Shown here piece after piece: positions 3,208 through 37,956 of a stretch of 64,000 nucleotides of DNA. Numbering within the stretch: the stretch's first letter is position 1; the number at the start of each line of letters is the position of its first letter. Below the pieces are notes generated by a model. That model saw only the letters and a program-made list of their open reading frames with translations, had not been told where the DNA came from and ran no database searches. The stretch is from the IMG/VR virus record IMGVR_UViG_3300042898_001429, positions 1-64,000 of that record; one strand, 5' to 3'. This DNA comes from a virus. A program made the position numbers and the translations under genes.

Positions 3208-4644
3208 TCAAGAGTCTTCTGACAAATCTATAATGTCAGCGTAAAGAGAATCAGTCTGGGAACTGTCTAGCCCACCATTAGGAAGTTGGCGAGCCTGTTC
3301 GCCTGCCTTGGCTCCAAACAATCGGGACAGTACGCCACTTGAGCCACTTGCTTCTACTCTGAGACTAACCATCTCTCGGTTGTCTGAGATACTTCGCATC
3401 TTTTCCACAAGGGTAAATACTCTGTCCATTTCAGTGGAAAGTGCTGGGTCAAGACCCTGTCCTTCTAGTTCTTCAGCAAACCTAGCGAACATCACACGAC
3501 CTACTTGCATCTCCACAAGCGCCCTCATTGCGGCTGTCAACTGGTCTTTAGTCCTAATCTCAATCGGCAAAGAAAACGCACACTCACTATTTTCTTGAAA
3601 TGAGGGGCAACGTGAGGACAGATAGCAATTATTACACTGTCGTAAAGGGTTCGCATTGTACTTGAGAACAGGGGTTACTTCGGGGGCAATTTCAATAGAT
3701 TCCCCATGCCCATCAAGGCTTTGCGTGCCCATGGACGTGATGTTTTCAATGCCCATGACTGGTAGCAATACACGCTGTCCCTCGTGCCGCCTCTCAGGGG
3801 GGGTGGTAGCAATACTTGCACCCCCAGAAACCACTTTTCCACCACTAGGGGTAGGGGGGGTGATAGCAACTATGTCCTCATTTTCAGGGGTACCCAACTC
3901 TTGCTCATCGGTGTCGTCCATAGGGTCATAGCCTCCAAAAGTTTTAGTTTCCCATTGTCTCCATGACTCTATCGCAAGCATCCCAATAGCAGATACTTCG
4001 TCTTCCATAACGGCGTCTATGTCAATTCCAAGTCGGATAATATCCGCACGATGTTTCTTACGAGCAGACTCTTTTTGCTGGGCTGGGTACCTGCGTAGAC
4101 CATGCCCATCCCATACTTGTGTCTCCCCATATCGGATGACAGACGTCCATGAGACCACCACGACAGAGTCCCAAGGGACGCTTTCAATTAGGTCAGGCTT
4201 AGAGGTCATTCCAATCAACTGGGCACCCCATCGCTCCGCCAGTTGCTTTATGCGCTTCTGATTCTTAGGAGTAACGGCTTTATCAGAAATAGCAACTCTG
4301 CCATTCTTTTGACATAACCACGCCAAGCGCTCCATGTCATCAGGGTCATTCCAAATAGGAACATACTTATCCCCAAGCCAAGCACCATCGTAGTTAGGTT
4401 GCCCAATAACAATGCTTAGGTTGTCAGCATGCAGTCGGATAAAACTATCGTATTTAGCAATGTCTTCATCTGTCTCTGAAACGTATAGAAGGACTTCGCC
4501 ACCATTGAACATGGCGCTGAGGTCTTGGTCTTTCTTCTTTGGGATAGGAAGATGAGTCAGATTGATACCAAATCTGGTAACACCTGCTGACAACAGCATG
4601 TTTCGGTATGAGCCTTTCTCGGCTCCACCAAAGTATATTTTCAT
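3208..4644 (-). CDS. Uncharacterised large protein with C-terminal four-cysteine cluster
   Basis: A 478-residue protein I do not recognise with confidence. The N-terminal ~240 residues look like an alpha/beta enzyme domain starting MKIYFGGAEKGSYR, with alternating hydrophobic strands (LSIVIGQPN, VVVVSWTSV) and a closing WDGHGLRRYPAQ segment. The order of strands is reminiscent of TIM-barrel enzymes such as tRNA-guanine transglycosylase/DpdA-like proteins, but this is only a suspicion. A Pro/Thr/Glu-rich linker (about 250-330) leads to CNNCYLSSRCPSFQENSEC, a C-x2-C-x5-C-x7-C cluster likely to bind Zn or Fe-S. The ATG at 4644 overlaps the upstream stop (ATGA); an in-frame ATG lies 21 bases earlier. 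Confidence 0.75.
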   Translation of the reverse strand: MKIYFGGAEKGSYRNMLLSAGVTRFGINLTHLPIPKKKDQDLSAMFNGGEVLLYVSETDEDIAKYDSFIRLHADNLSIVIGQPNYDGAWLGDKYVPIWNDPDDMERLAWLCQKNGRVAISDKAVTPKNQKRIKQLAERWGAQLIGMTSKPDLIESVPWDSVVVVSWTSVIRYGETQVWDGHGLRRYPAQQKESARKKHRADIIRLGIDIDAVMEDEVSAIGMLAIESWRQWETKTFGGYDPMDDTDEQELGTPENEDIVAITPPTPSGGKVVSGGASIATTPPERRHEGQRVLLPVMGIENITSMGTQSLDGHGESIEIAPEVTPVLKYNANPLRQCNNCYLSSRCPSFQENSECAFSLPIEIRTKDQLTAAMRALVEMQVGRVMFARFAEELEGQGLDPALSTEMDRVFTLVEKMRSISDNREMVSLRVEASGSSGVLSRLFGAKAGEQARQLPNGGLDSSQTDSLYADIIDLSEDS

Positions 4645-4880
4645 TCCCAGCCGACTCTGCGCCACACAGAAGGTGAGTGGTTTTGCTCTATTAGGAGCCG
4701 TTCAAGGTCATCTGCGTACAAGCGAACCATGGAGAAGCAAGGCATTTCGCCGTTCTCGTCAGTCCAGTTATCTTCGTCTTCGGTGGTCGGAAACCCGTCA
4801 TGTTCCACGCACAATGGTGGTCCACAAAAGTTTTGCTCCAAACCAATCTGATACCACTCTTCAAATGTTAAGTCATCCAA
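4641..4880 (-). CDS. Small acidic hypothetical protein
   Basis: A 79-residue acidic protein with a CGPPLCVEHDG segment near residue 20 and a PCFSMVRLY segment near residue 48. The paired cysteines and histidine suggest a small metal site. Similar short proteins occur in actinophages, without known function. It overlaps both neighbours by a few bases and is coupled to the large uncharacterised protein downstream, so the two may work together. Confidence 0.75.
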   Translation of the reverse strand: MDDLTFEEWYQIGLEQNFCGPPLCVEHDGFPTTEDEDNWTDENGEMPCFSMVRLYADDLERLLIEQNHSPSVWRRVGWE

Positions 4881-5890: not shown

Positions 5891-6151
5891 TTACCTAGTT
5901 TTAAGAGACTGGTTGATAAATCGTTGGTCATTTGAAAGGTTTATTGCGGTTTCATCCCGACCTGTCATTGGGCTTATCATTCCCTTGTCACCAAAATCCC
6001 TGCGCTCACGGTACTCATCCAACATACCTTGTGCAATATCAGGGGTAGATTTGAATGCAGCATTAGACTGTCTTTTAGCAATCAGTTGCGCTAAACGTGG
6101 TGTAGCACGGTAGTTGTCACCAAGGCGACGTCCTCTGTGGTCTGTTCCCAT
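5891..6151 (-). CDS. Small paralog family A member (HRG...TPRL N-terminus), copy 1
   Basis: An 86-residue hydrophilic protein starting MGTDHRGRRLGDNYRATPRL. The same N-terminal signature (T-[DN]-HRG-x-x-x-G ... TP-x-L) opens the products at 8518-8949, 9179-9511 and 9511-9786. After about residue 30 the copies diverge. No hydrophobic core or catalytic motif is obvious; the protein looks largely disordered. The family has no function I can name; conserved heads with variable tails suggest a shared targeting or assembly signal (inference). Confidence 0.8.
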   Translation of the reverse strand: MGTDHRGRRLGDNYRATPRLAQLIAKRQSNAAFKSTPDIAQGMLDEYRERRDFGDKGMISPMTGRDETAINLSNDQRFINQSLKTR

Positions 6152-6370: not shown

Positions 6371-6511
6371 TCATTTCTTTAGTTTTGATACTGGAACCCA
6401 TTGTTCCCCGACTTTTACATGCCGTTCAGATGTTCCTTCGGCATTTTTCATTACTTTAACCTCAAGCGGTGCTTTGGGAGCCTCTTTAGGAGACTCCTCT
6501 ACGCTTTTGGG
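6371..6511 (-). other. Candidate programmed -1 frameshift site and 46-residue extension
   Basis: The upstream gene ends GCC TCC CCA AAA GCG TAG. It holds the heptamer C CCA AAA (6511-6505) in the X XXY YYZ register. Seven bases further on, an 8-bp hairpin (one G-U pair, 5-base loop) spans 6497-6477. A -1 slip bypasses the TAG and reads 46 more residues (PKSVEESPKEAPKA ... GEQWVPVSKLKK) to a TGA at 6371-6373. The extension keeps the Pro/Lys/Ala-rich style at first, then becomes a compact basic tail. Alternatives are a homopolymer sequencing error, or a separate 26-residue gene starting at the ATG at 6451, which has GAGG 8 bases upstream. Confidence 0.55.
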
Positions 6512-7977
6512 GAGGCTTCCTTCTTTGCCGCTGGCTTCTTTGCAGGTTCCTTTTTAGCAGGAGCAGGCTTAGGAGCCGCTTCTTTCTTTGCAGGAGCCTC
6601 TGCCTTTGGAGCAGCCTCTTTTTTAGCGGGGGCTGCTTTAGCAGGTACAACGGCTTTAGCGGGTGCTGGAGCAGGTGCGGCTGGTGCAGGGGATGTAGGT
6701 GTTGTAGCAGCCGCTGGCTTTGCGGGAGCGGGCGCTGGAGCAGCCGCTTGAGCGGGGGCTGTCTGTTGCGCTTGTGGTCCTGCTGGGCTAGTTCCTGGCA
6801 TTGGGGTTATCTGTGGCTGAGCCGCTTGCGTACGAGCAGGGGTACCCGCTGGTGTAGCAGGGGTAGCCGTAGGTGCGGGGCGTGGTCTAGTTGGATTAGC
6901 AGGTGCACCACTTTGGCGAGGAGCCGCTGTAGGTGGAGTAGCAGGAGCCGCTGCTGGTGCAGCAGGTGGAGTTGTATTATTCGTAGTTGTAGTCGTTGTA
7001 GACGAAGGACCTGTTTGAGTCAAGTCATTGGTCTTTCCCTGTTGGGAAGTTACTTTATTACCTGAACCAACATTGGTGGCACCCGAAGGGTTTTGACCTT
7101 TTGGTGTGGCTCCCATAGCCATACCACCACGGCGACCACTAGACAGGTCAGCACCTGATAGGTCATAGTCACCATTTTGAGTTGTTGTGGCGGTGGCATC
7201 TGCTTTTCCACCAGTTCCACCTTTCCCTCCAGCACCGCCTGCGCCACCAGCACCGCCTGCGGCTGCTTTGGCTTGACGAGCAGTACGTTGGCGTTGAGCC
7301 GCAGGGCTGTCTGATACTTGACCAGCAACACGTCCACCTGTACGGGGACGCTTGATGGCAGGGGTACCTGCACCTCCAGCACCTCCAGGAGCGGCACCAC
7401 CAGCACCACCTTTACCAGCAGTGGCTGTTTGTGAGGACTGTGGACCAAATGTACGAGATGATGCGTCAACGTTTGTACTGTTGTCCTGTTGAGCGCCAGC
7501 ACCAAGGATGCTTCCGCCTGTTTGTACGTTTCCTGTTTCTACATTTCCAAACGTGATATTTACACGACGAGAGTTGTCAGAGTTATTAATGTCCATGTTG
7601 CTCTGGGTTCCACCACGGCGCATTGAACGGCTACTTGCTGGCTGTGTAATAGACTGCTGAGCGTTATTGCCTGCGCCACCCCATGCTTGGGAGATAGAAC
7701 TAGTGCTTCCTGCGACTGGTGCTGTGCCTGAACGACCCATGCTGTTGCCTGCACCATAATTTGTTTGCTGAGGGATGCCATAGTTTGGCTGTCCACCAAG
7801 GTTTGGTCCTTGACGTGGTCCCATTTGTGAACGTGGTTGACCAGTTGGTAGTTGACCTACTGGCGCTTGTGTGCCTAGTCCTGTGTTAAAACCAAACGAA
7901 CGCTGGCGAGCACCTTGCTGTTGCTGGTAATCAAACACTTGCTGTGCTTGCTGTTGGCGGTAATCATTAATAGCCAT
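6499..7977 (-). CDS. Disordered Gln/Gly/Ala/Pro/Lys-rich protein
   Basis: The 492-residue product has almost no hydrophobic core. Residues 1-60 are Gln-rich, the middle is Gly/Ala-rich (GGAGGAGGAGGKGG), followed by Thr and Pro/Ala tracts, and the last ~70 residues are Ala-Lys-Pro repeats (PAKKEAAPK) resembling histone H1-type tails. Such tails bind DNA or RNA non-specifically, so DNA compaction or a virion-internal role is possible, but nothing shows this directly. The low-complexity codon runs open spurious reading frames in other phases. The gene stops at TAG within a candidate -1 frameshift cassette. Confidence 0.8.
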   Translation of the reverse strand: MAINDYRQQQAQQVFDYQQQQGARQRSFGFNTGLGTQAPVGQLPTGQPRSQMGPRQGPNLGGQPNYGIPQQTNYGAGNSMGRSGTAPVAGSTSSISQAWGGAGNNAQQSITQPASSRSMRRGGTQSNMDINNSDNSRRVNITFGNVETGNVQTGGSILGAGAQQDNSTNVDASSRTFGPQSSQTATAGKGGAGGAAPGGAGGAGTPAIKRPRTGGRVAGQVSDSPAAQRQRTARQAKAAAGGAGGAGGAGGKGGTGGKADATATTTQNGDYDLSGADLSSGRRGGMAMGATPKGQNPSGATNVGSGNKVTSQQGKTNDLTQTGPSSTTTTTTNNTTPPAAPAAAPATPPTAAPRQSGAPANPTRPRPAPTATPATPAGTPARTQAAQPQITPMPGTSPAGPQAQQTAPAQAAAPAPAPAKPAAATTPTSPAPAAPAPAPAKAVVPAKAAPAKKEAAPKAEAPAKKEAAPKPAPAKKEPAKKPAAKKEASPKA

Positions 7978-8285
7978 TAACTTGATAATCCTTGCATTGA
8001 GTAGCGACTGGAACCTTCAAAATCATCTGCAATAAAACCATTGCGAATCATTACTGGTGCGCCAGAGACCCACGAACGATAAGTTGGCGCAAACCTATCT
8101 GTGTTTAGAACGTCCATAATTCCCATTTCTTGCTTGGCAAAGCCACGGCTCTGAGGCATCAACTGTTGTGGAACAACTGGACGAATAGCCTGAATAGTGT
8201 CGTGGTCGGAGATAGCGTTCTTCAACGCCATATCTACAAGCATCTCTGAGCGAGATTGCCATGGTTTATATGGAACTTGAATCAT
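7977..8285 (-). CDS. Hypothetical protein
   Basis: A 102-residue protein with a conserved-looking start (MIQVPYKPWQSRSEML), a helical segment around residues 15-35 and a C-terminal SWVSGAPVMIRNGF segment. No family recognised. It lies between the disordered protein and family B copy 1, with stop/start overlaps on both sides, so it is part of the same tightly coupled operon of small proteins. Confidence 0.7.
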   Translation of the reverse strand: MIQVPYKPWQSRSEMLVDMALKNAISDHDTIQAIRPVVPQQLMPQSRGFAKQEMGIMDVLNTDRFAPTYRSWVSGAPVMIRNGFIADDFEGSSRYSMQGLSS

Positions 8286-8518
8286 TATTTACAATCAGCG
8301 CAAAGACTAGAACTTGTAGGAGTTGATTCCCCACAGCCACCACATGAGTGCATTGCTGGACGAGGAATACCACCCGCAGGAGCGTCATCCTCGTTCATCT
8401 GTGGAAACCCTGTAGAAAGGTCACGAGCAAGTCGGGCATAAGCGCCACGACTTACTTGGCGACCTGGGTGATGTGCTTTGTCTTCGGCATAAGTGCCGTC
8501 GTCACGGTGTCCAGCCAT
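8285..8518 (-). CDS. Small paralog family B member with zinc knuckle, copy 1
   Basis: A 77-residue protein beginning MAGHRDDGTYAEDKAHHPGR, nearly identical over 25 residues to the start of the product at 8949-9179. Unlike that copy it ends in CGGCGESTPTSSSLCADC, a CxxC...CxxC zinc ribbon. The shared head with different tails parallels family A. Role unknown. Confidence 0.8.
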   Translation of the reverse strand: MAGHRDDGTYAEDKAHHPGRQVSRGAYARLARDLSTGFPQMNEDDAPAGGIPRPAMHSCGGCGESTPTSSSLCADCK

Positions 8519-8949
8519 TAGAATTCGTACTCCCCATCAATATCTTTGCGGTTTTTCAATGTTTTACCAATGTATGCGCCTGTGCCACCGCTTTGGCGGA
8601 CAACACGGTTGACTTCATGTGGATAGTTTGTGTTTGCTACGTTGGCTGACCATGCGTCATCTCGCCCGTCATCATATGGGGTATTGGAAATGCGACTCAT
8701 AACATCTTGTTCTTCTTTATAACCAATGTAACTAGGAAGATTGGTCATCACAGGTCCTGTTTCAACAGACCCACGTCCACGAAGAGGTGAACCTTGGCGA
8801 TGTGCTTTAATTACGTTAGATGCAAGACCTGCTGCATCATAAACACTAATATTAGTGTCTACACCAATTTGACGAGCAAGTGCTTGCTGAAGTCGTGGTG
8901 TAGGTCGGTGGTTGGTGCCCGTTGGACGCCCTCTGTGGTCAGTAGTCAT
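8518..8949 (-). CDS. Small paralog family A member, copy 2
   Basis: A 143-residue family A protein (MTTDHRGRPTGTNHRPTPRL). It is the longest of the four copies, with a polar, probably disordered tail rich in Asn, Asp, Arg and Gly. It is flanked on both sides by family B genes, giving an alternating B-A-B-A-A order. No catalytic residues are evident. Confidence 0.8.
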   Translation of the reverse strand: MTTDHRGRPTGTNHRPTPRLQQALARQIGVDTNISVYDAAGLASNVIKAHRQGSPLRGRGSVETGPVMTNLPSYIGYKEEQDVMSRISNTPYDDGRDDAWSANVANTNYPHEVNRVVRQSGGTGAYIGKTLKNRKDIDGEYEF

Positions 8950-9179
8950 TAGTAGTGTCCTTTCTTCAGACGCTCTTCTTTAAGTGTTTGTTCTTCCTGA
9001 ATGTCTTCAGGGTCCCAAGGGTCTAGTACTTCATCGGAGTTACCGACAAGACCTTTGACCATGTTGTTCATAGTCCAACCAGCAGGTGGTCCAGAAATGA
9101 AGTTTTCTCGGCTTACTTTGCGACCTTCGTGGTGCGCCTTGTCCTCTGCGAACGTTCCGTCGTCTCTATGTCCAGCCAT
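8949..9179 (-). CDS. Small paralog family B member, copy 2
   Basis: A 76-residue protein starting MAGHRDDGTFAEDKAHHEGR, matching copy 1 of family B in its first ~25 residues and then diverging. It lacks the zinc ribbon of copy 1 and ends in a Glu/Lys-rich helix. It overlaps both neighbours by single bases, as is typical of this operon. Confidence 0.8.
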   Translation of the reverse strand: MAGHRDDGTFAEDKAHHEGRKVSRENFISGPPAGWTMNNMVKGLVGNSDEVLDPWDPEDIQEEQTLKEERLKKGHY

Positions 9180-9511
9180 TAGTCTCTCCTAGCGTCATTT
9201 GAAATTTGGCGCTCGTAATAATCGCCGTGCTCTGTTTCTTCACCCATACTTGGTGAGCGGTCATTGTCCCATGCTGGGTCACTCAAACTGCTAGGTGTTT
9301 TAAAACCATCGTAGGGGTCAAGATACGGAGAGCCAAGTGCATCAGGATTACCACCATTTTTGGTAATCTCATCTGCGTAACCTCGGAAACGCTCTGAATC
9401 TTTTTCTTTTTGAGTCTTGTACTTATTCCAGTTTTGAAGTGGTGTAGGTTGGTGCCCACCATGTGACGTGGCAGGGTTACCTACTGGGTTGCCTCTGTGG
9501 TCAGTAGCCAT
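9179..9511 (-). CDS. Small paralog family A member, copy 3 (divergent)
   Basis: A 110-residue protein starting MATDHRGNPVGNPATSHGG and then QPTPLQNW, so it keeps the TDHRGxPxG and TPxL elements with an insertion between them. The remainder is very polar and Asp/Gly/Ser-rich. It is the most divergent family A copy. Function unknown. Confidence 0.78.
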   Translation of the reverse strand: MATDHRGNPVGNPATSHGGHQPTPLQNWNKYKTQKEKDSERFRGYADEITKNGGNPDALGSPYLDPYDGFKTPSSLSDPAWDNDRSPSMGEETEHGDYYERQISNDARRD

Positions 9512-9786
9512 TAGTAGCCGTTTCTTTCCATATAAAGAGCACTGTAAATTTGCTGTTCTTTGTCGGTAACTCCATGGTAAGTGCCTTTGCCATACTTGTC
9601 ACGCTCTTCACGGTAGGTATTAAGGTGCGCTTGTGCTTCACTAGGATGCACCTCTGGAGCATTCATATGTGACAGTGGACTTCCTCCACGGATGTCTTGT
9701 GTCATACGGCGAGCCATTACTTGTGCAAGACGTGGGGTGGCACGGTAGTTGTCACCAATTGGCATACCTCTGTGATTAGTACCCAT
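9511..9786 (-). CDS. Small paralog family A member, copy 4
   Basis: A 91-residue protein starting MGTNHRGMPIGDNYRATPRL, closest to copy 1 at 5891-6151: both share the HRG...GDNYRATPRLAQ head, and both have a YREERDK or YRERRDF segment about 45 residues later. The pair therefore looks like a more recent duplication than the other copies. Confidence 0.8.
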   Translation of the reverse strand: MGTNHRGMPIGDNYRATPRLAQVMARRMTQDIRGGSPLSHMNAPEVHPSEAQAHLNTYREERDKYGKGTYHGVTDKEQQIYSALYMERNGY

Positions 9787-23806: not shown

Positions 23807-24440
23807 TGAAAACCATTCGGTAGTCAGGTCCTTCAACGTTTATAAAATAACAACTCTCTTGGAGAATGGATAGCAAACGCTTCCCGTAAGTGCGACCAAG
23901 TTCATTAGGACTAAGAGATGTTGTAACAATCGTTGTTAGTTTCTCTTCGTAACGATTGTCAATCAAAGATATTAAAGCGTTACGTGCAAACTCTGTTGTT
24001 GCTCTCTCTGCGCCAAAACCATCTAGCACTACCAAGTCAAAAGTTCTGCGCATATACTTCATCAGAAATGGGTCTGAATACGGTTCAGGTAATTCACCAT
24101 CATTACGCATTTCATCGTAAACCATGTCAACGTAACGGTCAGCAGTAATGAAGATTCCTGACAACGGATGTGTTTCAACTGATGCAATCAAAGCACCTTG
24201 CGCTAAATGTGTTTTACCAACTCCTGTAGAACCATAGAGAAGAAAACCCATTCCTTCTTGAACATTCTTTACAACAGTTGTGCACCAGTGATTGAGTGCA
24301 TTAAATGCATCAGTGTCGCCTGCTTCATAATCATACGTTGACAAGGTCTTACCTTGGTACCGAGCAGGTATGCGAAGGTTCTTTAAACGTTCGTCTTTAC
24401 TCCTGTTTTGCCAGTATTTGTTGCTATGCCATTCACTCAT
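23793..24440 (-). CDS. dnaC: DnaC-like helicase loader ATPase
   Basis: A 215-residue AAA+ protein: Walker A LLYGSTGVGKTHLA, Walker B FDLVVLDGFGAE, sensor I TTIVTTSLSPNEL and a sensor II-like RLLSILQES. The N-terminal ~60 residues carry a helical region for helicase contact. DnaC/DnaI-type loaders place DnaB-type helicase on single-stranded DNA. The gene order loader, small protein, helicase and primase matches other phage primosome operons. Confidence 0.9.
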   Translation of the reverse strand: MSEWHSNKYWQNRSKDERLKNLRIPARYQGKTLSTYDYEAGDTDAFNALNHWCTTVVKNVQEGMGFLLYGSTGVGKTHLAQGALIASVETHPLSGIFITADRYVDMVYDEMRNDGELPEPYSDPFLMKYMRRTFDLVVLDGFGAERATTEFARNALISLIDNRYEEKLTTIVTTSLSPNELGRTYGKRLLSILQESCYFINVEGPDYRMVFNDAK

Positions 24441-24855
24441 TGTTACTCATTAATCGTGGGTCAATCTTGGGACCATCGTAGGGGGTGTTTTCTTCAACGG
24501 TGCCAACTTTTTTAGCCAAGGAATCTAGGCGACCAATGAAAGCCTTCCATGCTGGTATCCCATCCGTCAATGGTTTGATATTTATATCTTTGTGAAACTG
24601 GGTAATCATTGCCCTGATGTCATCGTGTGTTCTTCCCGTGTCAAGGATTGTGTTAAATGCTTTCATCATTGCTGGAGCGTTTACTTGGGAGTTCATGAGA
24701 TTTTCTGTGTCCATCAAAAGTTGGTCTCTGAATTCGTAGACCAAGGACGCCAAGGTGTTCTTTTGTTTTGGTTTCTTTTTTGAAGTGTCTTGTGCTGGGG
24801 CATCAGGGTCAGAGCCAAAGGTTAAGCCCCAGTCATCTTGCTGTCGTGGTTTCAT
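24433..24855 (-). CDS. Probable primosome/replication accessory protein
   Basis: A 140-residue helical protein with a basic, Lys-rich segment near residue 28 (SKKKPKQKN) and long helices afterwards. The C-terminal end reads GPKIDPRLMSNNE; the upstream gene ends with the similar KLGKIDPRLMS, so both share a conserved end peptide, KIDPRLMS. That shared tail may be a contact site for the same partner (inference). Overlaps of 4 and 8 bases couple it to its neighbours. Confidence 0.7.
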   Translation of the reverse strand: MKPRQQDDWGLTFGSDPDAPAQDTSKKKPKQKNTLASLVYEFRDQLLMDTENLMNSQVNAPAMMKAFNTILDTGRTHDDIRAMITQFHKDINIKPLTDGIPAWKAFIGRLDSLAKKVGTVEENTPYDGPKIDPRLMSNNE

Positions 24856-25319
24856 GACATCAACCTTGGGTCTATCTTTCCCAATTTTCCCCTTCTAGTT
24901 TGTTTATTCTTGTTTGTTATTCTTATTTGGGTAGCACCCCCGCTACCCTCGGGGGTAGCACCCGTGCTACTACTGGGTAGCGCCCCTGCTACCCCTAATG
25001 GGGAGGGTAGTTCCCGTGCTACCCCTAAATAATTAGGGTTATTGAAGTTGACCAAGTACTCATTCGGGAGGCTTCTGCCGTTCTTAGACTGCGTTCGTTT
25101 TATCAGAACACCAAGGTCAACCAGTTTATTAACTGACCTAATTACCGTGGTTCGGTGGTATCCAGTTTTCTGAGCCACGTGGTCATAGGTAGTCCATAGA
25201 GACTGCGTTTTGCCGTTCATGTAGCAAAGCATCTCTAGTAAAACATCCGTCGTTGTAGCGTCTCCACGCAAGTATTCCCTAAGCCACGTAGGGTATTGAA
25301 GGAAGGGTCCGTCAGCCAT
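24852..25319 (-). CDS. Helix-turn-helix replication-initiator-like protein
   Basis: The 155-residue protein has a MarR/replication-initiator style winged helix: LLEMLCYMNGKTQSLWTTYDHVAQKTGYHRTTVIRSVNKLVDLGVLIKR, with a basic wing. A low-complexity Gly/Pro/Ser/Ala linker follows, then KLGKIDPRLMS. The ATG at 25319 is preferred because AGGAGC precedes it; longer in-frame starts cross the divergent promoter. As first gene of the left operon, it may start replication or control the operon. Confidence 0.8.
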   Translation of the reverse strand: MADGPFLQYPTWLREYLRGDATTTDVLLEMLCYMNGKTQSLWTTYDHVAQKTGYHRTTVIRSVNKLVDLGVLIKRTQSKNGRSLPNEYLVNFNNPNYLGVARELPSPLGVAGALPSSSTGATPEGSGGATQIRITNKNKQTRRGKLGKIDPRLMS

Positions 25320-25344
25320 GTTCTGCTCCTTTTGATGGGTCTGA

Positions 25345-25372
25345 AGCATACACCAAGAATTGCTCTTGTCTA
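25345..25372 (-). promoter_or_regulatory. Candidate promoter for the replication operon
   Basis: On the minus strand TAGACA (25372-25367) and TATGCT (25350-25345) are separated by 16 bases, close to the sigma-70/SigA consensus TTGACA-N17-TATAAT. Transcription would start near 25338, leaving a short leader with AGGAG before the first gene. The site lies in the only divergent intergenic region of the window, which supports it. Confidence 0.55.
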
Positions 25373-25377
25373 TGGGG

Positions 25378-25383
25378 TAGAAT
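25378..25383 (+). promoter_or_regulatory. Candidate -10 element for the plus-strand island
   Basis: TAGAAT fits the actinobacterial -10 pattern TANNNT and ends 6 bases before the ATG at 25390, so the first transcribed base would be at or near the start codon. No clear -35 box or strong ribosome-binding site is visible. This geometry is that of a leaderless mRNA, which is common in Actinobacteria. The call rests on this one hexamer and its position. Confidence 0.4.
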
Positions 25384-25389
25384 TTTCTG

Positions 25390-25551
25390 ATGGCTAGTAA
25401 AAAAGTATGGGATACACCTGACCCTTCCAAAAAAGACAAGAAGTTAACCCCAGACCAAAAGGCGCAAGCCAAAGCCCGTGCTAAAAAAGCAGGACGACCC
25501 TACCCAAACTTAGTGGACAACATGGCTGTGTCCAAGAAAGATAAAAAATAA
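25390..25551 (+). CDS. Small basic protein of plus-strand island
   Basis: A 53-residue Lys-rich protein (MASKKVWDTPDPSKKDKK...) ending with AKKAGRPYPNLVDNMAVSKK. The GRPYPNLVDN element is a conserved feature I know from short actinophage proteins of unknown function. An in-frame stop just upstream fixes the ATG at 25390. The basic composition suggests nucleic acid or membrane contact, but no role is established. Confidence 0.7.
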   Translation: MASKKVWDTPDPSKKDKKLTPDQKAQAKARAKKAGRPYPNLVDNMAVSKKDKK

Positions 25552-32939: not shown

Positions 32940-34600
32940 TATCTATCCTTCCAATTAACAGTCGGTGCTGGGTTTTTTGGAAATTTAAAGATAGTTCCAC
33001 GAGCATGGAACACTAACCACTGCGCAAAAGACGAGATAGTAACAGGTTCTGTAAATGTTCTTGTAACAACTTGTGTTCCTGAACTTGTAGTACAAGTTAC
33101 ATTAACAATATGTGTTATGGTTACTTTTACAGGATTAATAGCATTTGTCATAGTTTTTGCAAAAGATTGCTGGTCAATATTAAAAGGAACAGCATAGTAT
33201 TTATGTTTACGTGCAGAAGCCTTAGTAGTTGCTTTGTTAGTTTCAGTAGCCACTTCTGTGGTTGTCAATTGCTTGGATTTACTATCAGTAAGGTACGTTA
33301 TATTTCCTTGCGCTAACACTTTTGTTTGTTGGTTTGGAAGCATTTCTTCCATTACAAACTTGCCACTAAAGTCCCATGTAATTTCACCGTCTGCTATCTT
33401 CTTAGCCGCTGCTGGGGAGACCCAAGATTTAATAGAACCTTCAAATTGTAAGTTTGCCCAGTCTGCACCAACTACAGCAGTGCCATCATTATAAAAATCA
33501 GCAAAAGTAGAATAGTTTGTAATATTTCTTATTAGTTGACCAGTTATTTCTTTATACAGGCTTGGGCTAGAATACTCAAAGTTAATTCCATATTTAGCAA
33601 TGTCATCAGCAGCAGCCGCAGTTGAACCATCAATGCGGGCTTGCGCTTCCATATCTTTAACAGCAGTCTTTAAAGAAGTTGTTAGGTATGCTTCTTCTTT
33701 GGCAAAGCCAATGTACAAAGCACGGATTTGCAATGAAACTTTACAGATGGTTGGTACATAGTTTTTACTAAACTTTACAAATTGAACACTAGATGTTTCA
33801 ACAAAACCTTCAACCATAAACATGGAAGAGAATACTATGCGAATAGGTAGGGGGCTAAGGAACGCAGCATTTCCATAATTCTTTTCAATGTTTGTTTCAA
33901 AGCCTTTATCATTAAACCCAACACTTGCCCCAGTACCATTGGCTGCATAAGACTTTGACACATTAGATGCGTTTTTCCAATAAGTGCTAAGGAAGTCTTT
34001 CATGTCAGGCGTTATAGACTGCCCAATAATTGAATCTAAGATGTACATGTCTGCAAGCACACCAAGGCTTGCTACGTCACCCCAGTTGGTGTTTGACCCA
34101 TAATTGTCAAGGGATTTTGTTAAGGGGTTGGCAGTATCTGTAGCAAAGCCGCCATTACTAATTTGGTCTGTTGCGTACATTGCAGAAACTACTTCAGCCT
34201 CACGGTTAAATAGCAACTCAAATGAAAATGCCGCAGTTCCAGCAATAGGTTGATACAACTGTGCAGGGTCTTGAAGCAATGGGTTAGCAACCATAGAGTT
34301 CATAGAGACTGTTCGGTCAATTGTTTCAGGGTTAAATTGAAAGAATAACCTACGTTGTTTAACTTTAGAAGCAGATGTATTAGGTGTGTTACCCAAAACA
34401 GCAGGGTAGATACCACGGATAAAACCACGTTGAAAACGGGTATCTACTACTTGCTTACCCCTAATAGGGTTATAGATATCAGGCTGTACAGGTCTAGGCC
34501 AAATAAAGTTAGGGTTGTCATCGGGTTGTCTTTTAAGACTTTTGCCAATTTCATAACCTTTTCCAAAATTAAAAAACTGGTTAGATGCGTAACTTTCCAT
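32939..34600 (-). CDS. Tail-tip protein, contractile-injection tube/hub-like
   Basis: A 553-residue protein between the tape measure and the LysM gene. It contains KQRRLFFQFNPETIDRTVSMN and then FSFELLFNREAEV, which recalls the FNP start of contractile-injection-system tube proteins that accompany LysM proteins. The C-terminal part ends WLVFHARGTIFKFPKNPAP. Most likely it connects the tube to the hub. I am not certain of the family. Confidence 0.65.
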   Translation of the reverse strand: MESYASNQFFNFGKGYEIGKSLKRQPDDNPNFIWPRPVQPDIYNPIRGKQVVDTRFQRGFIRGIYPAVLGNTPNTSASKVKQRRLFFQFNPETIDRTVSMNSMVANPLLQDPAQLYQPIAGTAAFSFELLFNREAEVVSAMYATDQISNGGFATDTANPLTKSLDNYGSNTNWGDVASLGVLADMYILDSIIGQSITPDMKDFLSTYWKNASNVSKSYAANGTGASVGFNDKGFETNIEKNYGNAAFLSPLPIRIVFSSMFMVEGFVETSSVQFVKFSKNYVPTICKVSLQIRALYIGFAKEEAYLTTSLKTAVKDMEAQARIDGSTAAAADDIAKYGINFEYSSPSLYKEITGQLIRNITNYSTFADFYNDGTAVVGADWANLQFEGSIKSWVSPAAAKKIADGEITWDFSGKFVMEEMLPNQQTKVLAQGNITYLTDSKSKQLTTTEVATETNKATTKASARKHKYYAVPFNIDQQSFAKTMTNAINPVKVTITHIVNVTCTTSSGTQVVTRTFTEPVTISSFAQWLVFHARGTIFKFPKNPAPTVNWKDR

Positions 34601-37026
34601 TACACCGTCCTCATCATTGTCATGCGTAATTCTCTTTCCAGAAGGTTTGCTACATCTTTAGCCATCTTTTGAATATCAAAAGAACCATTTCCAGAAGACT
34701 GAATATTAAAACTAGGAGACACCGTAATGTTATAAGAGTTTGAGGATGCTGTAGACGACCCCATGCTTAAAGGACCTTTGGTAACAGGGTCTCCACCAGC
34801 AGAGGCTTTGGGGTAAGACGCTGAGGGGTTAGTTGCATTTTGAGTACCGCTGGATGCGTACACGCTTCCGCTTCCAATAACCTCTCCCATACTCATTCCT
34901 GAATACATAAAAGATTGGGAAGATGTCAAAGATGCACTAGAGACAGAACCTCTAGCACCACTCTTAGATACAGATGAACTAGATATTTCACTAGAGGAAC
35001 CACCAGTTCCTGGAACTGGGGACACTCCAGACGTTACAGATGTACCAGTAGGTGACTCTGAAATACCTTGGCTTCCCGAGTATTCATTTCTACCAAAAGG
35101 TATACCAGCGGGTTGTACGTGGAATGGTTCGTCAGTCTGCGCTCCAGGTTGCGTAGCACCTGTTACCAGTCCAAAGTTAGCAGCGTTGGCACGAATCCAT
35201 TCATTCTCGGACTGACTCAAGTCAGCCGCAAGACCAATCTCATGCATGGACTGCCCAGGGGGTGCCATTGGAGGACCGTTTTCCCCATGCTTGTCATATA
35301 CCCAAACTTCACCATTCCAGATGCGGTCAGCATCCTTTGTTTTCTGAGTAACTCCAGCAGGGGCTTTGCTATAACGTTTACGAAACGAGGAGTCCTGACG
35401 GGCGCTACTACGCTTTGCATCACCAATCTCTAACTTAGGATTAGCAAGAAGCATCTTTTTAAGAGGTTCACGAAGTTTAGGGTCTAGTTGAGAAAGTTTA
35501 GATTTGTTATTAGCACTAAGTTTTGTTTCAGTTGTTTCGCCAGTCGTGGCGTCCCCACCCAGTTCATTGTTAGTACGAACACCCCATACACCACGGCGTT
35601 TACGAACAAGACCATCTGACGGGTCACCACCAGCCATCAAACCCGCTCCACCAAGAGCAAGAAGAGGGTTGCCAGTTGCCACCCCACCAACCACCATGGC
35701 TGCTCCACCAATTTTCTTACCTATATTAAAAGCAGACCCAAAAACACCACGATGGGCTTTGGTAGAAATACCAGCGCCTGCAATACCAGACAGTTTTTCT
35801 TCAAACATCCCCAATGCTTTTGTTGCCGCTTGAGTCATCTTTTCAAATGTGGCAAAGTTATCCGCTTGGCGTTTGTAGAAGTTTTCTTCACGGTTGGCTT
35901 GAACCCTTGTAGTTTCTTCAGCCTGGTTAGCGTAGTTTCCTTCAACACCCATTAACTCACGTTGGGATTTTTTAGAAGGGTCATAAAACCCTTTTCCACC
36001 TTTTTTCTGGTACGCAATATTTTGTTGAGCGTACTGTAACAAAAGGTCTTGTTGGTCTTCAGCAAGACCAGACATGCTTAAACGAGAACGGGTCATAGAA
36101 CCTTGTTGAAACGCTCCTGCAAGCATCTTTTCGTCGCCAAGACCAGTCCTCTTAATGATGTCTTGGTACACTTCTTGTTGGGTGCGTTGCTTTCCACCGA
36201 TGCCATACATACCAGTACCAAGCATCATAAACATCTGGTTAGTGGATTGTGGACCAGCCAAAGACCTAGTCATTCCAGCAAGTTGGTCAGTATCATAGGC
36301 GTAGCCAGAAGCAGCCCTCATAGCCTCAATAGAACCTGCTTGCTTTTGAGCATTAAGACCAGTGCTTGCTTGCAACCCAAGCAAGGTATTGATTCCACCC
36401 ATTCCCAATTTGTATTTTTGGAGTGGTTCCCGATATTGGTGGTAAACCTGATTTTGGCTAAGTCCAGTAGTCTGCTGGTACAGCATGTTCATGCGGTCAG
36501 CACTTAAACTATATGATGCTCCTCGTGCTGCACGTGCGTCCATTGACCCAAGCAAGTCCCCAGCAAGGCTTGCGGCAGCCATAAATGCATCTTTTTTTGT
36601 AGGGACTCTAGGTCCTCCACCAGCCGCTCCAGCCGCCGCAGATGGGGCTTCATAGTAGTTAACGGTTTGGCTGGACTGTACGACATTGCCAGAACCGACA
36701 TTCGTGCCACCAGTGAGTGCACCAGCCGCTGGAAGGTAGGAACCAGCAGTACCACCTTGGGCACTTCCAATTGCCTTCATGTTCTTGGCTACTTTGCCAA
36801 GTTCAGTTGCCCACTTCTTTGTGTCAGCAATAAGGGTAGGAAGGTCTTGTTTGAATTTAGTTACATGTCCACTAAGGGACTTAAACTCTTTATTTAATTC
36901 TTTGAAGGCAGAGGAATCAATAGCGGCTTGAGAGTTGACGCTGACCTTACCAACGGCTTTACCAGCCTCTGCGCCACCACCATCATCAAATGTGCTTCCC
37001 CCGATAGGGGACTCTATGTTTGCCAT
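34600..37026 (-). CDS. Tape measure protein with embedded M15 peptidase domain
   Basis: The 808-residue product has the tape-measure traits: long helical N-terminal part, Gly/Ala-rich hydrophobic section (about 420-455, GVFGSAFNIGKKIGGAAMVVGGVATG) and a location after the chaperone. Residues ~500-645 form a peptidase M15 (D-Ala-D-Ala carboxypeptidase/VanY-type) domain: SMHEIGLAADLS supplies the zinc His and Asp, and DEPFHVQP the last His. It would cut peptidoglycan cross-links during DNA entry. The C-terminal ~150 residues are Ser/Gly-rich. The length suits a tail of roughly 110-120 nm by the usual 1.5 A per residue rule (inference). Confidence 0.9.
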   Translation of the reverse strand: MANIESPIGGSTFDDGGGAEAGKAVGKVSVNSQAAIDSSAFKELNKEFKSLSGHVTKFKQDLPTLIADTKKWATELGKVAKNMKAIGSAQGGTAGSYLPAAGALTGGTNVGSGNVVQSSQTVNYYEAPSAAAGAAGGGPRVPTKKDAFMAAASLAGDLLGSMDARAARGASYSLSADRMNMLYQQTTGLSQNQVYHQYREPLQKYKLGMGGINTLLGLQASTGLNAQKQAGSIEAMRAASGYAYDTDQLAGMTRSLAGPQSTNQMFMMLGTGMYGIGGKQRTQQEVYQDIIKRTGLGDEKMLAGAFQQGSMTRSRLSMSGLAEDQQDLLLQYAQQNIAYQKKGGKGFYDPSKKSQRELMGVEGNYANQAEETTRVQANREENFYKRQADNFATFEKMTQAATKALGMFEEKLSGIAGAGISTKAHRGVFGSAFNIGKKIGGAAMVVGGVATGNPLLALGGAGLMAGGDPSDGLVRKRRGVWGVRTNNELGGDATTGETTETKLSANNKSKLSQLDPKLREPLKKMLLANPKLEIGDAKRSSARQDSSFRKRYSKAPAGVTQKTKDADRIWNGEVWVYDKHGENGPPMAPPGQSMHEIGLAADLSQSENEWIRANAANFGLVTGATQPGAQTDEPFHVQPAGIPFGRNEYSGSQGISESPTGTSVTSGVSPVPGTGGSSSEISSSSVSKSGARGSVSSASLTSSQSFMYSGMSMGEVIGSGSVYASSGTQNATNPSASYPKASAGGDPVTKGPLSMGSSTASSNSYNITVSPSFNIQSSGNGSFDIQKMAKDVANLLERELRMTMMRTV

Positions 37027-37028
37027 AC

Positions 37029-37184
37029 TTAGCCCTTAGAACTTCGCCAACGAGCCATTGAATACCAATATGCACGTTGACGTACTGTCATATATTTTAG
37101 GTCATTTAGACCGAACCCATGGTAGACAGTGGCTATTGACTCGTATTCCAAATAGGTGATTTGTAGGTTAACCAAATAAAAGGG
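37029..37184 (-). CDS. Frameshifted C-terminal part of tail assembly chaperone
   Basis: The frame +1 (or -2) to the upstream gene is open from just before that gene's stop. From 37184 it codes for 51 residues ending RQRAYWYSMARWRSSKG at a TAA at 37031-37029, two bases before the tape measure ATG. The segment YLEYESIATVYHGFGLNDLKYMTVRQRAYWY has the style of the second half of tail assembly chaperones (short helices, R-x-R-x-x-W-Y). It has no good start codon of its own, so it is probably joined by frameshifting within TCC CTT TTA TTT GGT TAA. Confidence 0.65.
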   Translation of the reverse strand, partial: PFYLVNLQITYLEYESIATVYHGFGLNDLKYMTVRQRAYWYSMARWRSSKG

Positions 37185-37956
37185 AGACCCAGTCCATGAG
37201 AAGGGTTAGTTCCTCATTGCAAACGCCGCACTGAGTTTTCACCTCCCCCATTCTTGGACCTGGGGGGTCAGTGGTTAGCGACTTTACCAACTTACTTCTA
37301 TCACCAAGATTCAGGGCTAATGCCCAGTCCTCTAAGTTCTCTGGCCTTGTTGCTCCGTCCCAGACGGTACAACGTGCCAACATCAACGTATTTTGCTCTG
37401 CGGTAGTCTTACCTTTTTTTGCAACATACAAACTATCTGAACCAGTCGGATAATTTAGTTTTACCTTTAACCCATTTTTAAGGGTAACTTCCATAGGAGT
37501 ATGGAAGTCCTTATCGGCATTTTGGATTTGAAAATCCTCGTCTAGTTGGATAGTTATAAAGTTTGTACCTTCACAACTTCCACAAGTAACTTCTAGTTCT
37601 CGTGCCCGTCCATAGGTTGCTTTAATTGTTCCAAGAAACAGAAGGTCACGGTCACCAATCATTAACTGGTCTACCAGCAATGGGGTTTCCTGAATATCTA
37701 TATCTCCAATTGAAAGCACAGAACGGGACAAAAGAACCGACATATATTCAGCATATGACAGTTCCTTTTTGGAAGAAGCAGAAGCAATAAACTCCTCGTC
37801 TTCCCCATTTAGTTCACGAACAACTGCTTTTGTTTGCCATTCCCCTGTTTCATAATTAAGCAAACCTCGCAAAAGGTCTACATGTACGTTAGGTACATCA
37901 TTAATTTGTGGAACAGAGTCAGCAATTACAGCATTGGCTCCATTATCATTTGACAT
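37168..37956 (-). CDS. Tail assembly chaperone, N-terminal (unshifted) product
   Basis: A 262-residue protein with T4 gp26/chaperone features. It has LRELNGEDEEFIAS-like regulatory segments, two CxxC pairs (CGSCEG and CGVCNEE) that may bind zinc, and a central SADYMSVLLSRS-type helix. It lies directly before the tape measure gene, the normal place of the chaperone that keeps the tape measure soluble. The frame ends at TAA inside a region where a second frame is open and carries the missing half (see entry at 37029-37184). Confidence 0.8.
   Translation of the reverse strand: MSNDNGANAVIADSVPQINDVPNVHVDLLRGLLNYETGEWQTKAVVRELNGEDEEFIASASSKKELSYAEYMSVLLSRSVLSIGDIDIQETPLLVDQLMIGDRDLLFLGTIKATYGRARELEVTCGSCEGTNFITIQLDEDFQIQNADKDFHTPMEVTLKNGLKVKLNYPTGSDSLYVAKKGKTTAEQNTLMLARCTVWDGATRPENLEDWALALNLGDRSKLVKSLTTDPPGPRMGEVKTQCGVCNEELTLLMDWVSLLFG

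What the first reader, a model, noticed from the sequence alone, without database searches (positions are those of the whole stretch)
6371..6511. Canonical-looking -1 ribosomal frameshift cassette ending a disordered Ala/Pro/Lys-rich protein
The gene ends one codon after the in-frame heptamer C CCA AAA (X XXY YYZ). A spacer of exactly 7 bases leads to an 8-bp hairpin with a 5-base loop (6497-6477). The -1 frame then stays open for 46 residues and continues the Pro/Lys-rich style before a compact basic tail. All three parts have textbook geometry, and the gene is not the tail chaperone where frameshifting is usual. Both products would share 490 residues and differ only in the tail, which could set binding or incorporation into virions.
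Basis: partly seen in the sequence, partly recalled or inferred. Interest (0 to 1): 0.78.

Follow-up and report, generated by a model that had tools for sequence, protein, structure and literature searches.

The report
Conserved phage frameshift adds β-domain
In a group of uncultured phages related to actinobacterial phages, ribosomes are signalled to slip back one base at the end of an otherwise disordered protein, so that a fraction of the copies should gain a small folded tail; the signal and the tail are conserved across relatives, so the slip is almost certainly real, although what the protein does is unknown.

Summary
The 492-codon ORF (7977..6499, minus strand) ends C CCA AAA GCG TAG, followed by a 7-nt spacer, an 8-bp/5-nt hairpin and a 44-codon open -1 frame. 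In this single sequence the heptamer is weak evidence, because a Pro/Lys-rich gene gives it at that site in 9% of codon shuffles. Comparison settles the matter. Five distinct genomes (window, L034, L003, L004, L005) keep heptamer, spacer and stop without one change in 14 nt, and keep the stem (97.5% of cells paired), although 37 of 85 downstream columns vary. The -1 tail is under purifying selection (dN/dS about 0.2-0.35 in nine of ten pairs); the other two frames hold 3-5 stops each. In three genomes a -1-frame stop just upstream confines the shift to 15-18 nt containing CCCAAAA. The five form one clade. Outside it the gene has one uninterrupted frame, ending either in a Lys-rich end like the short product or, in L051, in a C-terminus with the same predicted three-strand pattern as the tail. 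So -1 frameshifting, apparently gained once, probably makes a C-terminal β-domain optional. Mechanism: canonical. Gene: a new non-chaperone user of it. Protein function and frameshift efficiency are unknown; nothing was measured.

The parts
6499..7977 (-). Zero-frame ORF, 492 aa, Ala/Pro/Lys-rich, no family match; short product
6505..6511 (-). Slippery heptamer C_CCA_AAA (tRNA-Pro CCA to CCC, tRNA-Lys AAA to AAA)
   Evidence: invariant in 5 distinct loci
6498..6504 (-). 7-nt spacer GCGTAGA, contains the zero-frame stop TAG (6501..6499); invariant
6477..6497 (-). Stimulatory hairpin: 8-bp stem 6497..6490 / 6484..6477, loop 6489..6485
6371..6505 (-). -1 frame extension, 44 aa plus stop, under purifying selection; residues 16-42 predicted as three strands and a short helix
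6161..6358 (-). Next gene (65 aa, MAVNESRS...), starts 12 nt after the tail's stop; conserved downstream neighbour used to find relatives
7977..8285 (-). Upstream neighbour (102 aa), conserved; its stop overlaps the start of the 492-aa ORF

Best explanation
This is a programmed -1 ribosomal frameshift signal. Ribosomes decoding ...CCA AAA meet the GGAGUCUC hairpin 7 nt downstream; a fraction slip back one base with both tRNAs (CCA to CCC, AAA to AAA) and read 44 more codons. The phage therefore makes two proteins from one gene: a 492-aa disordered Lys-rich protein, and some amount of a 535-aa form ending in a small beta-domain. The signal was probably gained once, in the common ancestor of the five genomes that carry it. 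The best-supported role is to fix the ratio of copies with and without that C-terminal domain, the domain probably being a binding or interaction module. Shown: conservation, coding signature, confinement of the shift, clade. Inferred: that slippage occurs, its rate, and what the domain does.
For: Heptamer and spacer 0/14 variable columns and core without loop 3/30 variable versus 37/85 in the rest of the tail, Fisher p = 7e-4. The codon before CCA is TCC, GAC or GCC, coding different residues but always ending in the C that the heptamer needs. Stem: 97.5% of cells paired, changes A-U to G-U (L034) and U-G to C-G (L004) keep pairs; one terminal pair is lost in L004. Synonymous sites frozen in tail codons 1-9 (0 of 5 conserved-residue codons vary) against 10 of 14 later, p = 0.011. 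Tail frame pS about 0.45-0.5, pN about 0.2 in the distant pairs; other frames hold 3-5 stops in every sequence. Shift window is 15-18 nt in L003, L004, L005. Five carriers form one clade at 100% bootstrap by flanking genes. Tail modelled with three strands, pLDDT about 90 over residues 21-40; in-frame C-terminus of L051 modelled with similar strand lengths and spacing and is the best HMM match among 12 ortholog C-termini, E = 0.007. C_CC.A_AA.A belongs to the V_VV.A_AA.R class, among the most efficient in E. coli (PMC4066793).
Against: No protein or reporter measurement. Only five distinct carriers, with two pair-preserving stem changes and no double-sided compensation; the shuffle control has no power here. 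No upstream Shine-Dalgarno-like stimulator is conserved. C_CC.A_AA.A was not among the three top motifs of the E. coli survey (C_CC.A_AA.G was), and the host's tRNAs are unknown. The homology of the tail to L051's C-terminus rests on a weak HMM score and two predicted models of 44 residues.
Confidence: 0.9

Rival explanations
1. The tail is a separate small gene (about 26-31 aa) with its own start codon, translated by reinitiation or coupling after the TAG.
For: Each carrier has an ATG in the -1 frame within the tail: codon 19 in window and L034, codon 16 in L003, L004 and L005, also codon 14 in L005.
Against: The ATG position is not conserved and none has a conserved Shine-Dalgarno; AGAGGAG after the stop has no start codon at usable spacing. 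The heptamer, spacer and stem upstream of any ATG would have no reason to be frozen. The tail's residues 1-13 are conserved although they would lie outside such a gene.
Confidence: 0.05
2. A frameshift mutation fixed in an ancestor truncated the protein, and the tail is a decaying, untranslated remnant; the hairpin is coincidental.
For: Relatives outside the clade have a single uninterrupted frame, as expected if the break came later.
Against: Tail under purifying selection among carriers (68-93% identical to the window's tail), no stop in any of them, and the break itself is more conserved than its surroundings.
Confidence: 0.03
3. Assembly or sequencing error in the CCCCAAAA run.
For: None beyond the short homopolymers.
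Against: Five distinct sequences from several metagenomes agree on frame and stop; in two of them (L003, L005) the run is CCCAAAA rather than CCCCAAAA.
Confidence: 0.01
4. The frame change happens in transcription (polymerase slippage) rather than translation.
For: It would give the same two proteins.
Against: C3-4/A4 runs are far shorter than the A or T runs of about 8-9 known to make bacterial polymerase slip (established knowledge, not tested here); the conserved hairpin at 7 nt fits ribosomal stimulation.
Confidence: 0.01

Closest known systems
X_XXY_YYZ -1 programmed frameshift signals of bacteria and phages (IS3 family, dnaX, lambda G-GT)
   Same: Heptamer in frame, short spacer, downstream stem-loop, two products sharing their N-terminal part
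   Different: Simple 8-bp hairpin, no conserved upstream Shine-Dalgarno, and a gene outside the groups where such signals are usual
Phage coat-protein extensions by frameshift (T7 10A/10B, T3, Lactobacillus phage A2, Listeria PSA/A118/A500; PMC5009743)
   Same: Phage gene whose 3' end is extended by an optional C-terminal domain; relatives may carry the domain in frame instead
   Different: Here the protein is a disordered Ala/Pro/Lys-rich one outside the structural block; the domain is about 28 residues, too small to be Ig-like
Tail assembly chaperone frameshift (lambda G-GT and relatives)
   Same: -1 shift near the end of a short-product gene
   Different: Not upstream of a tape-measure gene; this phage's own candidate chaperone pair lies at 37956..37029 before the tape measure and uses another frame (+1 or -2)

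Membership tests
-1 PRF signal of the X_XXY_YYZ class | Slippery heptamer in zero frame before the zero-frame stop | tested here: met
   C_CCA_AAA in 5 of 5 distinct carriers
-1 PRF signal of the X_XXY_YYZ class | Stimulatory RNA structure 5-9 nt downstream | tested here: met
   7-nt spacer, -10.7 to -11.6 kcal/mol hairpin in all five; 97.5% cells paired; rare under a synonymous null. That it stimulates is inferred.
-1 PRF signal of the X_XXY_YYZ class | -1 frame downstream is a selected coding sequence | tested here: met
   dN/dS about 0.2-0.35 in nine of ten pairs, 0.70 in the close L003/L005 pair; no stops in this frame only
-1 PRF signal of the X_XXY_YYZ class | Measured production of the trans-frame protein | not testable with these tools
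   needs reporter assay or mass spectrometry
Tail assembly chaperone G/GT | Located immediately upstream of the tape-measure gene | tested here: not met
   tape-measure-like ORF is at 37026..34600, this gene at 7977..6371
Frameshifted Ig-like extension of a coat or tail protein | Extension is an Ig-like domain on a virion protein | tested here: not met
   44-residue tail, three short strands, no Pfam match and no BFVD match at E <= 0.001; virion location not testable here

The most novel reading that the evidence does not exclude
A single phage gene family uses three architectures: short only (Lys-rich end), long only (in-frame beta-domain, L051), and both forms from one gene through a recently gained -1 frameshift signal. 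Frameshifting here would be an evolved ratio control on a nucleic-acid-binding disordered protein outside virion assembly.
Probability: 0.3. Interest if true: 0.65.

Novelty: new member of a known kind. Interest (0 to 1): 0.52.

Why it matters
Known frameshifting in tailed phages is concentrated in tail chaperones and a few coat or tail proteins. This is a comparatively well supported case in a different, unassigned protein, with sister lineages that have the gene in a single frame. It lets one ask how a frameshift signal arises and why a fixed ratio of tailed and untailed copies is useful. Practically, ordinary gene calling on these genomes would miss 44 selected codons.

Tried and rejected
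Near-identical DNA, the 155-aa neighbour and the tail found nothing in named phage records; tail relatives were absent from the bacterial and archaeal genome collection. Pfam and PHROGs gave nothing for the protein, and Pfam nothing for the tail. The same 18-mer CCCAAAAGCGTAGAGGAG occurs in unrelated phage contigs (L026/L027, L032; CCAAAAA in L030/L033); I rejected these as chance matches at stop/Shine-Dalgarno junctions because in L026 AGAGGAG precedes an ATG at normal spacing and in L032 the -1 frame closes after 5 codons. Terminator: no U-run follows the stem. Stop readthrough: the zero frame closes again 15 codons after the TAG. Upstream Shine-Dalgarno stimulator: AAGGAAG in the window and L034 only, not conserved. 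Tail HMM against all six frames of the single-frame relatives gave nothing significant; only the restricted search of ortholog C-termini gave L051.

Full report
What is in the sequence. On the minus strand a 492-codon ORF (7977..6499) ends GAA GCC TCC CCA AAA GCG TAG. C_CCA_AAA at 6511..6505 is an in-frame X_XXY_YYZ heptamer. After a 7-nt spacer (GCGTAGA) comes an 8-bp stem with a 5-nt loop (6497..6477, -11.6 kcal/mol). The -1 frame then runs for 44 residues, SVEESPKEAPKAPLEVKVMKNAEGTSERHVKVGEQWVPVSKLKK, and stops 12 nt before the next gene. The window is part of a 94,522-base virus record. Its terminase is 45-47% identical to those of BRock-like Streptomyces phages, so the host is plausibly actinobacterial, but that is an inference.

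Chance in this one sequence. A Pro/Lys-rich gene easily makes CCCAAAA: shuffling synonymous codons gives the heptamer at this exact place in 8.9% of cases. A hairpin as stable at 5-9 nt spacing arises in 10 of 1500 synonymous rewritings of the tail. The single sequence is suggestive only.

Relatives that carry the cassette. Searching viral contigs with the upstream neighbour, the DNA core, the tail alignment and the downstream neighbour gave four further distinct sequences with heptamer, stop, hairpin and tail: L034, L003, L004, and L005 (the last in several contigs with identical sites). Across the five, the heptamer and spacer show no variable column in 14, the 3' arm none in 8, the 5' arm three in 8, while 37 of 85 columns after the stem vary (Fisher p = 7e-4 for the core without loop). 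The amino acid before Pro-Lys differs (Ser, Asp, Ala) but its codon always ends in C. Of the three stem changes two preserve pairing (A-U to G-U in L034, U-G to C-G in L004) and one loses the loop-closing pair (L004). There is no double-sided compensatory change, so the stem is supported by conservation, not by covariation. Codons 1-9 of the tail have no synonymous variation at conserved residues, whereas 10 of 14 later ones do (p = 0.011).

The tail is a translated sequence. In the -1 frame, distant pairs show pS about 0.45-0.5 against pN about 0.2, dN/dS 0.2-0.35; the close pair L003/L005 has 0.70 with few changes. The other two frames contain 3-5 stops in every sequence. All five stay open to the same place before the next gene. 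In L003, L004 and L005 a -1-frame stop lies 6 or 9 nt upstream of the heptamer, so a -1 shift must occur within 15-18 nt in which CCCAAAA is the only slippery site. Sequencing error is thereby excluded, a separate start codon is unlikely (ATG positions differ and lack a conserved Shine-Dalgarno) and decay is contradicted.

Relatives without it. In L009, L010, L051, L052, L053, L055, L062-L066 and others the gene runs in one frame up to the same downstream neighbour. A tree of five flanking proteins puts all carriers in one clade with 100% bootstrap; L009/L010 and L051 branch just outside. The signal was thus most simply gained once. Several relatives (L052, L053, L055, L020) end in Lys-rich sequence like the short product. 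L051 ends in frame with PERKLMRNANGELAPHTLVDGKWTSEW, the best match to the tail HMM among 12 ortholog C-termini (E = 0.007). AlphaFold2 gives the window tail three strands (16-20, 26-32, 35-38) with pLDDT near 90 over residues 21-40, and L051's last 44 residues three strands with nearly the same lengths and spacing (19-24, 30-36, 39-42). No known fold match was found. The reading is that frameshifting makes optional a C-terminal domain that at least one relative has on every copy. This homology is likely but not proven.

Mechanism and comparison. C_CC.A_AA.A belongs to the V_VV.A_AA.R group that is among the most efficient in E. coli, and the authors expect the rule to hold widely in bacteria (PMC4066793). 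Phage precedents outside the tail chaperone are coat and tail proteins of T7, T3, A2 and the Listeria phages (PMC5009743). Of 2476 annotated joined frameshift genes in the SEA-PHAGES genomes, 2397 are tail chaperones and 79 hypothetical (PMC10885494), so frameshifts in unassigned genes are known but rarely examined. The mechanism is canonical; the gene family is new to it as far as I could find. I find no evidence that the protein is a virion component: it lies beyond the replication genes, among small genes of unknown function and near a gene matching a queuine tRNA-ribosyltransferase family. A Lys/Ala/Pro-rich disordered region could bind nucleic acid; that is a guess.

Verdict. The claim is comparative, not experimental. 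Efficiency and function remain open.

Noticed in passing
window 37956..37029, minus strand: ORF 37956..37168 before the tape-measure-like gene ends LLFG*, and the +1 (or -2) frame continues with ...FYLVNLQITYLEYESIATVYHGFGLNDLKYMTVRQRAYWYSMARWRSSKG*, which looks like the second half of a tail assembly chaperone reached by a +1/-2 rather than a -1 shift.
   Followed up: partly
window 24433..25472, minus strand: Two adjacent genes overlapping by 4 nt end in nearly the same peptide, GKIDPRLMS* and GPKIDPRLMSNNE*.
   Followed up: no
window 5891..6151 and 8285..9786, minus strand: A set of small paralog-like genes with N-termini M(G/A)TDHRG.P.G.N.R.TPRL and MAGHRDDGT.AEDKAHH; number and order vary between relatives in the gap between the 65-aa and 155-aa genes. 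No family match for those tested (5891..6151, 8518..8949, 9179..9511).
   Followed up: no
window 3208..4665, minus strand: 485-aa protein matches PHROG 887, queuine tRNA-ribosyltransferase (E 5e-36), suggesting DpdA-like DNA modification; conserved with two unassigned neighbours (155 and 163 aa) in the relatives.
   Followed up: no
L026 13170-13187, L027 1538-1555, L032 2268-2285: Unrelated phage genes end in the same 18-mer CCCAAAAGCGTAGAGGAG (...TSPKA*...TTPKA*); probably chance at a stop/Shine-Dalgarno junction.
   Followed up: partly
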